Origin: Macrophomina tecta
Lineage: Eukaryota > Ascomycota > Dothideomycetes > Botryosphaeriales > Botryosphaeriaceae
Direction of reading: 5' to 3'
Assembly (NCBI GenBank): GCA_024180945.1
Contig: JAKSGN010000003.1
Location: forward strand, 1,736,001-1,800,000
DNA length: 64,000 nucleotides
Position numbers and translations under genes: made by a program. Shown piece by piece: positions 43,615 to 47,581 of this stretch. Below the pieces are notes generated by a model. That model worked only from the letters and a program-made list of their open reading frames with translations. It searched no databases and was not told where the DNA came from. Each line of letters begins with the position of its first letter. The first letter of the stretch is position 1.

Positions 43615-45005
43615 CTAATTCTTCTTCAACGCACGACCTGCGATATCCTTACGGTATTGCATGCCCTCGAAGTGAATGGCCTCAACACCCTTGTAGGCTT
43701 TTTGAACCGCCTCTTCCAGCGTCGGCGCCCATGCTGTTGATGCGATGACACGACCGCCAGAGGTGCGCAGGATACCATCCTTCAGGGAGGTGCCAGCGTG
43801 GAAGTGGACCGTGTCTGCATGTTGTTAGATGTCTGCACGGCGGGTCCGGGAAGTATCACCCACCATTTGGCACGGGGTCGAGCTTCATCTCTACACCCTT
43901 CTTGTACGAGCCAGGGTAACCGCCAGCAGCAACAACTACAGTAGCGGCACTCTTCTCACCGACCTTCAGCTGGAAGCTGCCGAGCTTGCTGTCAGTGCAA
44001 GCCAGCATGAGCTCAGCGAGGTCGCTATCCATAAGAGGCAGAAGTGACTGAGTCTCAGGGTCACCGAAGCGGACATTGTACTCCAGGACCTTGGGGCCGT
44101 TCTTGGTCATCATGAGGCCAGTGAACAGACAGCCGACCATTGGGTAGCCTACATGTAGTTATCAGCAAGCTGCGACTGCGAGTCCGTGGGCTGAACGCAC
44201 CTTCAGCCTTCATGCCGTCCACGGTGGGCTGCAGCACCTCCTTCTCGATCTGATCCACAATCTCCTTGGGTGCAATGCGCGTAGGCGAGTAGGTACCCAT
44301 GCCGCCGGTGTTCGGGCCTTGGTCGCCATCAAAGATACGCTTGTGGTCTTGGGCCGGAGGCAAGCTCTGGATGCTGGTGCCGTCGCTGAAGGTGAGGATG
44401 CTGAGCTCATCGCCCTCGAGAAACTCCTCGATGACGACCTCGTCACCAGCAGAGCCAAACTCGCGATCGAGCATGATGTCCTTCAACGCCTGGTGTGCCT
44501 CCTCCTTCGTTGTGGGAATAATGACGCCCTTTCCGGCAGCCAAGCCAGAGGCCTTGATGACGACGGGATGCGAAACACTGTCGAGATAGGCTTTGGCAGC
44601 ATCATGAGAGGTGAAGTTTTGGTAGGCGGCGGTAGGGATGTTGTGGCGGTGCATGAAGTCCTTGGAGAAGGTCTTGCTTCCCTCCATGCGGGCAGCGCTG
44701 CCAGAAGGGCCAAAGCACTTGACCTGCGGGGCATGCTTGTTGAAGTGGTCCACAATGCCATCGACGAGAGGAGCCTCGGGGCCGGGGATGAGGAGGTTCA
44801 CGTTGTTCTCGAGGGCGAATTTGGAGAGAGCGGGAAAGTCGTCCGCCTTGATAGACTCGACGTTCTGCGTCTTGGTGAGAGCTCCGGTGCCGCCATTGCC
44901 GGGGACAACGAAGATCTGGTCTATGCGGGGAGACTGCGAGAGCTTCCAGGCAATGGCGTGCTCTCTGCCGCCATTGCCAACGAGGAGGACACGGACGTCG
45001 GCCAT
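43615..45005 (-). CDS. Phosphoribosylamine-glycine ligase (GARS), monofunctional
   Basis: Second step of purine synthesis: ATP-dependent joining of phosphoribosylamine and glycine. Exons: 45005-44201, 44148-43864, 43814-43615; 429 aa. Visible features: VLLVGNGGREHAIAWKL at the N-terminus, IPGPEAPLVDGI, GPSGSAARMEGSK, an ATP-grasp core (HPVVIKASGLAAGKGV), the family signature RFGDPETQ in exon 2, and YRKDIAGRALKKN-stop. In most fungi this domain continues directly into AIRS within one ~790-aa enzyme (yeast Ade5,7). Here a TAG ends the protein exactly at the domain boundary, and the AIRS domain is found fused to homoserine kinase on the other strand. Start at 45005 (MADVRVLL); an upstream in-frame extension is unlikely. 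Confidence 0.95.
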
Positions 45006-45241
45006 TGTGGAGTGTGGAGGAGTGGTGGTGGTGCTTGGTTCTGGAGGTGCCCCGCGGCGCTGAGCTTGGGGCTTGAAATTTTGGTGGAGCAGGGCCGATT
45101 GCGGGGCATCAAGCTGGAACTTTTCCCGTAGGGCTGAAGGGTCGCCAGTGACTCGAACCACCGCCGTCCTCGCCCACAAACCTCACCAACCCAACTCCCA
45201 AATCCTCGAGGGCCCGGCGCGCACTGAGCCTTCAACCAGCC
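45006..45241. promoter_or_regulatory. Shared divergent promoter, GARS / homoserine kinase-AIRS
   Basis: 236 bp between the start codons of two divergently transcribed genes. Because AIRS acts three steps after GARS in the same pathway, the arrangement could still co-express the two purine activities. No specific binding site recognised. Confidence 0.5.
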
Positions 45242-47581
45242 ATGGCGTGCGTCATCAAGGTGCCCTGCTCATCCGCCAACATCGGCCCCGGCTTCGACGT
45301 CATCGGCCTCGCCCTCTCCATCTACCTCGAGCTGCACGTCACTCCCGATTCTGCCGCCCAGCAAGCCAATCCGCTCAATTGCCGCGTTACCTACGAAGGC
45401 CAGGGCGAAGAGGAAGTCAGCCTCGACCCCGAGGTCAACCTCGTTACCCGCGTCGCCCTCTACGTCCTCAAGTGCCATGGCCAAAGAACATTCCCCGGCA
45501 CCCACGTTCACATTAAGAACCCAATTCCCTTGGGTAGAGGCTTGGGAAGTAGTGGTGCGGCAGTGGTAGGACTCGCCTGATTTGTGCGACCTTGCTGCGA
45601 GCAGTGGCCAGCTTCTCCATGACGTGCTCATGAATGCATTGTGCGTGGCAGCGGGCGATGTGACCAGCTGCCTCGTATGATCGACTTCACGTCCACCAGA
45701 GTTCAGCTGGCCACTGACTGTGGCGAGACAGACAACACATTGTATCGGCTGATGCGTCTTTTTTTTTTTTTTTAGGTCGCCGGCGTGAACCTCGGAAACG
45801 AGGTTGGGAACCTTGGTCTTTCGAAGGCCAGAATGCTGGACTACTGTCTCATGATCGAGAGACATCCTGACAATGTCGCTGCCGCTTTGTATGGTGGCTT
45901 TGTCGGAACATACCTGAACGAACTGGACCCCGCGGACATGTCCCGCAAGGAAATTCCCCTGGCCGAAGTGCTGCACGAGCCCGCTGGCGGCGTTGACACT
46001 GGCCTCCAGCCTCCGGAGCCGCCGCTCAACATTGGCCACTACAAAAAGTTCAAGTGGGCAAAGGAGATTAAGTGTATTGCCATAATACCCCAGTTCGAGG
46101 TCTCGACCGCGAAGGCAAGAGGCGTCCTCCCTGACAAGTACACCCGTGCCGACATGGTGTTCAACCTGCAGAGGATAGCCCTCCTGACCACTGCTCTTGG
46201 TGAATCACTCCCAGACCCTGACATGATTTACGAGGGTATGCAGGATAAGGTTCACCAGCCCTACCGCAAGACTCTCATTCCCGGTCTTACCGAGATCCTT
46301 CAATCTGTCACCCCCAAGTCGCACCCTGGCCTTCTTGGCATCTGTCTGTCTGGCGCGGGCCCAACTATCTTGGCTTTGGCCACCCACAATTTCGACGGCA
46401 TTGCAAATCACATTATCGAGCAGTTCAAGAAAGAGAACATCACCTGTGATTGGAAGCTCTTGGAGCCGGCCGAGGAGGGCACCACGGTCACTCGGAGCAC
46501 TCCGTCGCAACAGGAGGGCATGACTTATGCCTCTGCTGGTGTGAGCATCGACGCCGGAAATGAGCTTGTCCAGCGTATCAAGGCTTCCGTCAAGTCTACT
46601 CGTCGCGCAGGCGCTGATGCTGAGATTGGTGGCTTTGGAGGTACTTTTGACCTCGCTGCTGCAGGCTACAAAGAGGCACCCATCCTAGTTGGAGCCATTG
46701 ACGGCATCGGTACCAAGGTCAAGATTGCTTTCGACATGGGTAAGCACGACACTGTCGGCATCGACCTTGTCGCCATGAACGTGAATGACCTCGTCGTCCA
46801 GGGCGCCGAGCCTCTCATGTTCCTTGACTACTATGCATGCAGCAAGCTAGACGTTGACGCCGCTGCCGCATTTGTACACGGTGTTGCCGAAGGCTGCAAG
46901 CAGTCCAACTGCACACTTGTCGGTGGTGAGACGGCTGAAATGCCTGGTCTCTACTCGGCCGGTGAGTACGACGCTGGCGGTGCGGCAATCGGAGCGCTTG
47001 CCCGCAACCAGCCCATCCTCCCCGACACTGCTTCCATGGTTGAGGGCGACGTCCTCATCGGCCTTGCGTCGAGTGGTCCGCACTCCAACGGCTTCTCCCT
47101 GATCCGCAAGATCATCGAGCGTGCCGGTCTTTCCTTCCACTCTCCTGCCCCGTGGTCTCAATCTGGTGAGACCGTCGGCGTGTCTCTGCTGACCCCCACC
47201 CGCATCTACGTCCGCCCGCTTCTTGCCGCTTCTCAACAGCGCCTCCTCAAGGGTATGGCCCACATCACCGGTGGCGGACTGCTCGAGAACATCCCACGCA
47301 TGCTGCCCAATCATCTTCAGGCTGTTATCGATGCGTCGACATATCCCGTTCCTCCCGTGTTCCACTGGTTGAAGAAGGCCGGTTGCGTGGAGGACAAGGA
47401 GTTTTCGCGGGCCTTCAACACCGGCTTGGGTATGGTCTGTGTGGTGGAGAAGAGCAAGGTGAAGGAAGCGACAGAGACCTTGGAGAAGGCAGGAGAGAAG
47501 GTCTTCGTGGTGGGTGAGTTAGTCAAGAGGAAGAATGGCGATGAGGGGTGTGAAATCAAGAACATGCAGGCGTGGAACTAG
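45242..47581 (+). CDS. Fusion: homoserine kinase - phosphoribosylaminoimidazole synthetase (AIRS)
   Basis: Exons 45242-45565 and 45776-47581 (intron GTAGGA..TTTTAG), 709 aa. Residues 1-~345 are homoserine kinase (threonine synthesis): [20 protein letters not shown] and the GHMP ATP loop [14 protein letters not shown] (94-107), [10 protein letters not shown], and [11 protein letters not shown] toward the end. After [16 protein letters not shown] and a short linker, residues ~357-709 are AIRS/Pur[65 protein letters not shown] and [15 protein letters not shown]. No stop or splice signal separates the two domains, which lie in one exon. AIRS closes the imidazole ring in step 5 of purine synthesis and is normally fused to GARS. 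The two enzymes have no direct pathway link. The Met at 357 (ATG at 46520) could be an old or alternative start. Confidence 0.92.

What the first reader, a model, noticed from the sequence alone, without database searches (positions are those of the whole stretch)
43615..47581. Bifunctional purine enzyme split in two: free GARS, and AIRS fused to homoserine kinase
Seen: a GARS reading that stops at the exact end of the domain (RALKKN-stop), and on the opposite strand a single uninterrupted exon running from homoserine kinase into a complete AIRS domain. Known: in yeast and other fungi GARS and AIRS are one polypeptide (Ade5,7), and homoserine kinase (Thr1) is free-standing. Inferred: an inversion or recombination at this locus broke the ancient GARS-AIRS fusion at the domain linker and created a new THR1-AIRS chimera that joins threonine and purine synthesis in one protein. 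Both halves look intact and conserved, so the new arrangement is probably functional. I know of no description of such a fusion.
Basis: partly seen in the sequence, partly recalled or inferred. Interest (0 to 1): 0.88.

Follow-up and report, generated by a model that had tools for sequence, protein, structure and literature searches.

The report
Threonine-purine fusion enzyme of fungi
In this fungus one half of a two-part purine-making enzyme has changed partners and is now joined to an enzyme of threonine synthesis, and related moulds of the same large class carry the same swap, so it is an old, stable rearrangement rather than a sequencing error.

Summary
On the minus strand lies a free-standing GARS gene (3 exons, 429 aa). 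Divergent from it, 236 bp between start codons, lies a 2-exon gene for 709 aa: complete homoserine kinase (HSK), then complete AIRS. Searches of the 54-Mb genome found no second GARS, AIRS or HSK. It is not a local accident. The 120 listed hits of one protein search, and the 120 listed of a second with another probe, are all HSK-AIRS fusions (227 distinct rows, many Aureobasidium). Named carriers are Dothideomycetes, Zymoseptoria, Venturia, Alternaria and Lasiodiplodia among them; one row is labelled cork oak, probably a contaminant. The ancestral GARS-AIRS (Ade5,7) protein turns up in other Pezizomycotina classes, under no Dothideomycete name. In a tree of 34 sampled fusions plus the window, the fused AIRS form one clade (100/98). 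So a common ancestor probably moved AIRS from GARS to HSK once. One inversion would explain the head-to-head layout; that is inferred, not shown. That Zymoseptoria GARS lacks AIRS was printed in 2017 (PMC5568738), without mention of homoserine. Ten full-text searches listed no title or abstract describing the fusion. Activity and coupling of the two pathways are untested.

The parts
43615..43814 (-). GARS gene, exon 3 (C-terminal domain, ends RALKKN-stop)
   Evidence: GARS_C PF02843 103 bits for the whole protein
43864..44148 (-). GARS gene, exon 2
   Evidence: second PF01071 match lies in this stretch
44201..45005 (-). GARS gene, exon 1 with start codon
   Evidence: PF02844 and PF01071, TIGR00877 525 bits for the whole protein
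45006..45241 (.). 236-bp divergent interval between the two start codons, probable shared promoter; one TGACTC at 45149-45154
   Evidence: the motif alone is weak (present in 7.85% of 2000 shuffles)
45242..45565 (+). HSK-AIRS fusion gene, exon 1 (homoserine kinase residues 1-108)
   Evidence: PF00288 68.5 bits, residues 66-149 of the spliced protein
45566..45775 (+). intron, 210 nt, GT..AG, inside the homoserine kinase part
   Evidence: the spliced product aligns over its whole length with relatives; no transcript seen
45776..47581 (+). HSK-AIRS fusion gene, exon 2: rest of homoserine kinase, 16-residue linker (residues 341-356), complete AIRS

Best explanation
The gene encodes a real bifunctional protein: homoserine kinase (threonine synthesis) joined by a short linker to AIR synthetase (purine step 5), while GARS (purine step 2) is a separate enzyme made from the divergent neighbouring gene. 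It arose once, in a common ancestor of the Dothideomycetes sampled. Most likely the ancestor carried HSK and GARS-AIRS head to head, and one inversion, with breakpoints at the GARS/AIRS linker and at the 3' end of HSK, swapped the AIRS tail from GARS to HSK and left the shared promoter region in the middle. Each domain probably works as it does in its unfused relatives; the two reactions share no intermediate, so substrate channelling is not expected, but the two activities are now made in fixed ratio. Shown: gene anatomy, no second copy found, conservation, one clade of fused AIRS domains, retained family residues. Inferred: the inversion, both activities, absence of channelling.
For: 120 of 120 listed hits to the 709-aa protein (4267 passed, the rest not seen) carry GHMP_kinases_N + AIRS + AIRS_C, at 69-92% identity. 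With a recalled yeast Thr1 probe, limited to proteins of about 586-1864 aa, 383 proteins pass and 120 of 120 listed are the same fusion, 46 of them named Aureobasidium. The GARS+AIRS probe finds bifunctional GARS-AIRS in other Pezizomycotina (best rows 68%) and no row named as a Dothideomycete among the 120 listed of 4074. AIRS tree: 34 fusion rows plus the window form one clade, 100/98, against 33 Ade5,7 rows. Of the residues invariant in 33 Ade5,7 proteins the window keeps 136 of 143 in GARS and 101 of 102 in AIRS. Both domains pass the curated cut-offs for homoserine kinase and purM. The linker is 16 aa here and 14-33 aa in 227 fusions, and varies faster (mean identity to the window 40%) than HSK (76%) or AIRS (70%). 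No second copy found in the genome. Independent experiment: deleting the GARS-only gene of Z. tritici gives purine auxotrophs rescued by adenine or hypoxanthine (PMC5568738, section 34), and the same species carries the fusion (P0307).
Against: No transcript or protein data were seen. No outgroup fungal DNA was available, so the predicted HSK / Ade5,7 neighbourhood outside the class is untested, and so is the head-to-head layout in any other Dothideomycete. AlphaFold gives only moderate confidence (mean pLDDT 77.5, pTM 0.51), and besides the linker it has four segments under 50 inside AIRS and one inside HSK. The nesting of the fused clade inside Ade5,7 rests on a branch of 80/87, below the star threshold. 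No enzyme assay of the fusion was found.
Confidence: 0.85

Rival explanations
1. Misassembly or misannotation: two genes wrongly joined in this assembly.
For: Only a priori: gene merging is a common annotation error.
Against: One open frame crosses the junction in the DNA itself; 227 distinct fusion rows with a 14-33 aa linker come from many genomes and metagenomes.
Confidence: 0.01
2. The swap arose without an inversion, for example by duplication of the locus followed by loss of complementary parts, or by relocation of an AIRS copy behind HSK.
For: No outgroup synteny was tested; other multi-step routes give the same end state.
Against: The former partners still sit side by side, head to head, 236 bp apart, as one inversion of a divergent HSK | GARS-AIRS pair predicts; relocation would not put GARS there. 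No other AIRS match in the genome.
Confidence: 0.3
3. The fusion arose by transfer of AIRS from outside the fungi.
For: Fusions elsewhere sometimes involve transferred domains. No bacterial PurM was put in the tree, so this was not tested directly.
Against: The fused AIRS clade groups with Pezizomycotina Ade5,7 AIRS domains (68 rows together 100/98) against animal and basidiomycete rows, and the start of AIRS ([13 protein letters not shown] and variants) matches Ade5,7.
Confidence: 0.02
4. The gene makes two products: the fusion is cleaved, or a shorter HSK-only transcript is also made, so that the domains mostly act apart.
For: The linker is poorly conserved and the end of it, with the first residues of AIRS, is of low model confidence (residues 350-366 under pLDDT 50). 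Animal GART makes a short GARS-only product from an alternative transcript (recalled).
Against: The junction lies inside one exon here, so no intronic end signal is at hand. Linkers are short in all 227 rows.
Confidence: 0.1

Closest known systems
Fungal bifunctional GARS-AIRS (Ade5,7 / Ade1)
   Same: AIRS and GARS domains of the same families; the AIRS residues invariant in 33 Ade5,7 proteins are kept at 101 of 102 sites
   Different: The two domains are on separate genes here, and AIRS has homoserine kinase as its N-terminal partner
Monofunctional GARS MYCO4 of Zymoseptoria tritici (PMC5568738)
   Same: Free GARS of 428 aa without AIRS, in a Dothideomycete; deletion gives purine auxotrophy
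   Different: The paper treats AIRS as a third separate enzyme (protein 74864) and its main text has no occurrence of 'homoserine'; the fusion partner was not reported there
Free-standing fungal homoserine kinase (yeast Thr1)
   Same: The 120 listed fusions align at 61-67% identity over 94-100% of a recalled yeast Thr1 sequence
   Different: Yeast Thr1 ends after HSK (recalled); here AIRS follows
Animal trifunctional GART (GARS-AIRS-GART)
   Same: Shows that purine enzymes are found as fusions; AIRS homologous (fish rows P0125, P0127)
   Different: Partners are all purine enzymes, whereas HSK belongs to another pathway

Membership tests
Bifunctional GARS-AIRS (Ade5,7) | GARS and AIRS on one polypeptide | tested here: not met
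   GARS stops at 43615 on the minus strand; AIRS is on the plus strand behind HSK; no other GARS_A or AIRS match in the genome
Homoserine kinase (ThrB/Thr1) | Passes the equivalog model TIGR00191 | tested here: met
   351.7 bits against cut-off 168.25, residues 4-348
AIR synthetase (PurM) | Passes the equivalog-domain model TIGR00878 and keeps residues invariant in Ade5,7 | tested here: met
   413.9 bits against 236.35, residues 357-692; 101 of 102 invariant sites kept
GARS (PurD) | Passes the equivalog-domain model TIGR00877 over its whole length | tested here: met
   525 bits against 288, profile 2-424 of 425; 136 of 143 invariant sites kept
HSK-AIRS fusion of Dothideomycetes | HSK, short linker and AIRS in one chain, in the clade of fused AIRS domains | tested here: met
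HSK-AIRS fusion of Dothideomycetes | Both catalytic activities in one protein | not testable with these tools
   needs complementation or enzyme assay
HSK-AIRS fusion of Dothideomycetes | Head-to-head neighbourhood with free GARS in other members | not tested
   no fungal DNA besides the window's genome was fetched (one search gave viral contigs only)

The most novel reading that the evidence does not exclude
A single inversion in the ancestor of the Dothideomycetes exchanged partners between a divergent THR1 / ADE5,7 gene pair. The resulting HSK-AIRS protein was kept across the class because it couples threonine synthesis (the source of glycine through threonine aldolase) to purine synthesis (which consumes glycine), by fixed stoichiometry or by cross-talk between the ATP-using domains. 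That would make it a class-defining marker and a new kind of pathway link.
Probability: 0.2. Interest if true: 0.8.

Novelty: new variant of a known kind. Interest (0 to 1): 0.62.

Why it matters
It is a rare, clean and apparently old example of a partner swap: a purine domain left a fusion found in the other fungal classes sampled and joined an enzyme of another pathway, and the Dothideomycete rows that I saw, crop pathogens among them, carry the product. It makes testable whether such fusions are kept for function or by chance, gives a discrete marker for who belongs to Dothideomycetes (Arthoniomycetes and uncertain genera can be tested), and offers an answer to the question left open in 2017 of why Zymoseptoria GARS lacks AIRS. 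Databases file many of these proteins under one half only ('homoserine kinase', 'phosphoribosylformylglycinamidine cyclo-ligase-like', 'ADE1'), which hides the second activity.

Tried and rejected
Misassembly and merged annotation: rejected. Second GARS-AIRS, HSK or AIRS gene in the genome: not found (these searches score only the best candidates). PF00288 found five places: one is this gene (C3), the other four were not identified one by one, but none came up with the fusion protein. Foreign origin of AIRS: not favoured by the tree, with the limits that no bacterial PurM was included, that the tool warned of long outgroup branches, and that the branch nesting the fusions within Ade5,7 has only 80/87. 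GARS tree with the window row alone: its place is unresolved, compatible with vertical descent, no more. The quick AIRS tree of the same call was equally unresolved for a single row. Scan of viral contigs for fungal DNA: 30 loci, matches at 31-43% identity that begin in the linker or in AIRS, no homoserine kinase; not used. Regulatory motifs in the shared interval (six patterns tried): TGACTC once (shuffle chance 7.85%), its extension GTGACTC at the same place (2.6%, chosen after seeing it), no full Gcn4-type site, no TATA or CCAAT; treated as no evidence. Linker counting by a simple text pattern missed 146 of 228 rows and was replaced by an alignment. A first splice junction was three bases off (711 residues) and was corrected. 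Structure model: moderate confidence; low segments lie at 166-181, 350-366, 392-396, 423-437, 461-465 and 493-509, so the linker is not the only weak part; no fold search was run on it. A recalled 2012 survey of fungal gene fusions (doi 10.1073/pnas.1210909110) is not held, so whether it lists this fusion is unknown.
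Full report
What is there. The window comes from a 54.1-Mb genome in 37 contigs, contig C3, positions 1736001-1800000. The nearest listed relative of the fusion protein is filed under Lasiodiplodia hormozganensis (92% over the whole length), a member of Botryosphaeriaceae, Dothideomycetes, so the organism is probably of that family (inference). 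On the minus strand three exons (45005-44201, 44148-43864, 43814-43615) give a 429-aa GARS that ends at the end of the domain (purD model 2-424 of 425). On the plus strand two exons (45242-45565 and 45776-47581) give 709 aa: homoserine kinase (residues 4-348 on TIGR00191) and AIRS (residues 357-692 on TIGR00878), both far above the curated cut-offs. The 16-residue linker (341-356) lies inside exon 2, and one frame is open from within HSK to the end of AIRS. The two start codons are 236 bp apart.

Copy number. The GARS ATP-grasp family matches the genome only at this locus, the AIRS N-terminal family only here, and the fusion protein itself finds nothing else. So this locus supplies the only GARS, AIRS and homoserine kinase that these searches could see. 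Four other GHMP-kinase matches were not identified one by one.

Not a local event. A search with the 709-aa protein gave 4267 proteins under the threshold (7988 candidates scored). The 120 listed all carry the three domain families of the fusion, at 69-92% identity and 683-870 aa. By my count 56 of the 120 carry an organism name in the listing; all 56 belong to groups that I know or looked up as Dothideomycetes. A second search used a recalled yeast Thr1 sequence and admitted only proteins of about 586-1864 aa, so that free homoserine kinases could not appear. It gave 383 proteins in all, and 120 of 120 listed are again HSK-AIRS fusions. This list is redundant: by my count 46 rows are named Aureobasidium. 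The named rows are of Dothideomycetes (my knowledge, in part looked up) except one filed under cork oak (P0347), probably a fungal contaminant. Thirteen rows are common to the two lists, leaving 227 distinct rows. I looked up twelve of the named carriers; all twelve are Dothideomycetes: ten in named orders (Botryosphaeriales, Venturiales, Gloniales, Aulographales twice, Mytilinidiales, Myriangiales, Dothideales, Mycosphaerellales twice) and two placed as uncertain in order. The rows beyond the best 120 of each search were not seen, so a fusion outside the class is not excluded. I saw no row named as Arthoniomycetes, which NCBI places beside Dothideomycetes in dothideomyceta.

Ancestral state. 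A query of the window's GARS and AIRS in tandem, admitting proteins of about 712-2266 aa, gave 4074 proteins (7976 candidates scored). The 120 listed all carry GARS and AIRS families; five of them (P0122-P0125, P0127) are longer proteins of 1224-2063 aa, two of them fish and one a moth. Named rows include Leotiomycetes, Eurotiomycetes, a Sordariomycete (Colletotrichum), Pezizomycetes, Xylona, Chaenotheca, Sarea, Geoglossomycetes and lichen fungi; six were looked up and none is a Dothideomycete, the others are by my knowledge. The best rows reach 68% identity; a Dothideomycete GARS-AIRS would be expected to score higher, and none is named. About half of the rows have no name. Magnaporthe oryzae has an Ade5,7 homologue of GARS and AIRS (PMC9502316, passages), and a paper on Coprinopsis describes the fungal genes that it compares as bifunctional GARS-AIRS (PMC7552465, passages).

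One origin. In a maximum-likelihood tree of the AIRS domain (71 rows: 34 of the 227 fusion rows chosen for named diversity, the window, 33 of the 120 rows as Ade5,7, and 3 more of these as outgroup) the 35 fusion rows form one clade with support 100/98, and need one change of state in 100% of 200 bootstrap trees. They lie inside the Ade5,7 rows: in 0% of those bootstrap trees are the Ade5,7 rows one side of a branch; but the branch that sets Morchella and Choiromyces apart from the rest has only 80/87, so starred branches do not force it. The tool warned of long outgroup branches. Identity of AIRS to the window averages 70.8% for the 34 fusions (63.0-94.1) and 63.5% for the 33 Ade5,7 (up to 70.0). 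The order of the classes is unresolved. A GARS tree with the window as the only Dothideomycete left its place open.

Conservation. Of sites invariant in the 33 Ade5,7 proteins the window keeps 136 of 143 in GARS and 101 of 102 in AIRS. Among 227 fusion rows the linker is 14-33 residues long, 15-20 in 207 of them, and on average 40% identical to the window, against 76% for HSK and 70% for AIRS. The start of AIRS ([16 protein letters not shown] and variants) is alike in Ade5,7 and in fusions, so the break fell just before it. A structure model of the Lasiodiplodia protein (mean pLDDT 77.5, pTM 0.51) has residues 350-366 under 50, that is, the end of the linker and the first residues of AIRS; four further segments in AIRS and one in HSK are also under 50, so the model says little about how the domains are arranged.

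How it arose and works. If the ancestor had HSK and GARS-AIRS head to head, one inversion with ends in the GARS/AIRS linker and at the 3' end of HSK gives exactly the present layout: GARS on one strand, HSK-AIRS on the other, old promoters still between them. This is inferred from geometry; outgroup DNA could not be reached. HSK makes O-phosphohomoserine and AIRS closes the imidazole ring of AIR (established biochemistry, recalled); they share no intermediate, so I expect two independent active sites in one chain, made in fixed ratio. A possible link is glycine, made from threonine and used by GARS (recalled), but nothing here tests it.

What is in print. PMC5568738 (passages, and sections 26 and 34 in full) reports that GARS of Zymoseptoria tritici (MYCO4, 428 aa) and of related Mycosphaerellaceae lacks AIRS, calls the reason unknown, counts AIRS as a separate enzyme, and shows that loss of MYCO4 causes purine auxotrophy. 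The word homoserine does not occur in its main text. Z. tritici carries the fusion (P0307, 712 aa), so the AIRS gene that they cite is probably this fusion (inference; the identifier was not matched). Ten searches, some aimed at the fusion and some at fungal fusions or purine genes in general, gave listings, in part cut short, with no title or abstract start that describes it; (homoserine kinase + purine + Dothideomycetes) found no paper. The listed papers were not opened except the three named here. Subscription papers are mostly not held, and a recalled 2012 survey of fungal fusions was not available, so prior mention is possible.

Verdict. A correct and interesting observation with a wrong scale: not a new chimera at one locus but, on this evidence, an ancient partner swap shared by the Dothideomycetes sampled. 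The surprise is real; the functional meaning is open.

Noticed in passing
window 1-16000: G+C is 0.29-0.38 against 0.49-0.61 from about 20 kb on, and no stop-to-stop frame of 180 aa lies there: an AT-rich block as left by repeat-induced mutation of repeats in such fungi (inference).
   Followed up: no
window 29867-33361 (-): Open frame of 1165 aa with an NPHP3_N/NACHT-type NTPase and ankyrin repeats, a fungal NLR-like architecture.
   Followed up: partly
window 21123-22358 (+): HET (heterokaryon incompatibility) domain frame of 412 aa, about 7.5 kb from the NLR-like gene.
   Followed up: no
window 35071-36696 (-) and 39335-40282 (+): Radical SAM + acetyltransferase protein (Elp3-like, my reading) and an adaptor medium subunit; neighbours on the GARS side that can serve as synteny anchors.
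   Followed up: no
window 52893-53609 (+) and 56880-57848 (-): Short-chain dehydrogenase and a polyprenyl synthetase on the AIRS side.
   Followed up: no
P0347: A 652-aa HSK-AIRS fusion filed under Quercus suber (cork oak); most likely a Dothideomycete contaminant in that assembly.
   Followed up: no
L009-L038: Thirty viral contigs encode AIRS-like (PurM) matches at 31-43% identity, without homoserine kinase: probably phage-borne purine genes.
   Followed up: no
Zymoseptoria tritici chromosome 8, 84,634 (PMC5568738): The T-DNA insertion of mutant myco#4 lies about 50 bp upstream of the GARS-only gene; if the head-to-head layout holds there, it would hit the region shared with HSK-AIRS.
   Followed up: partly
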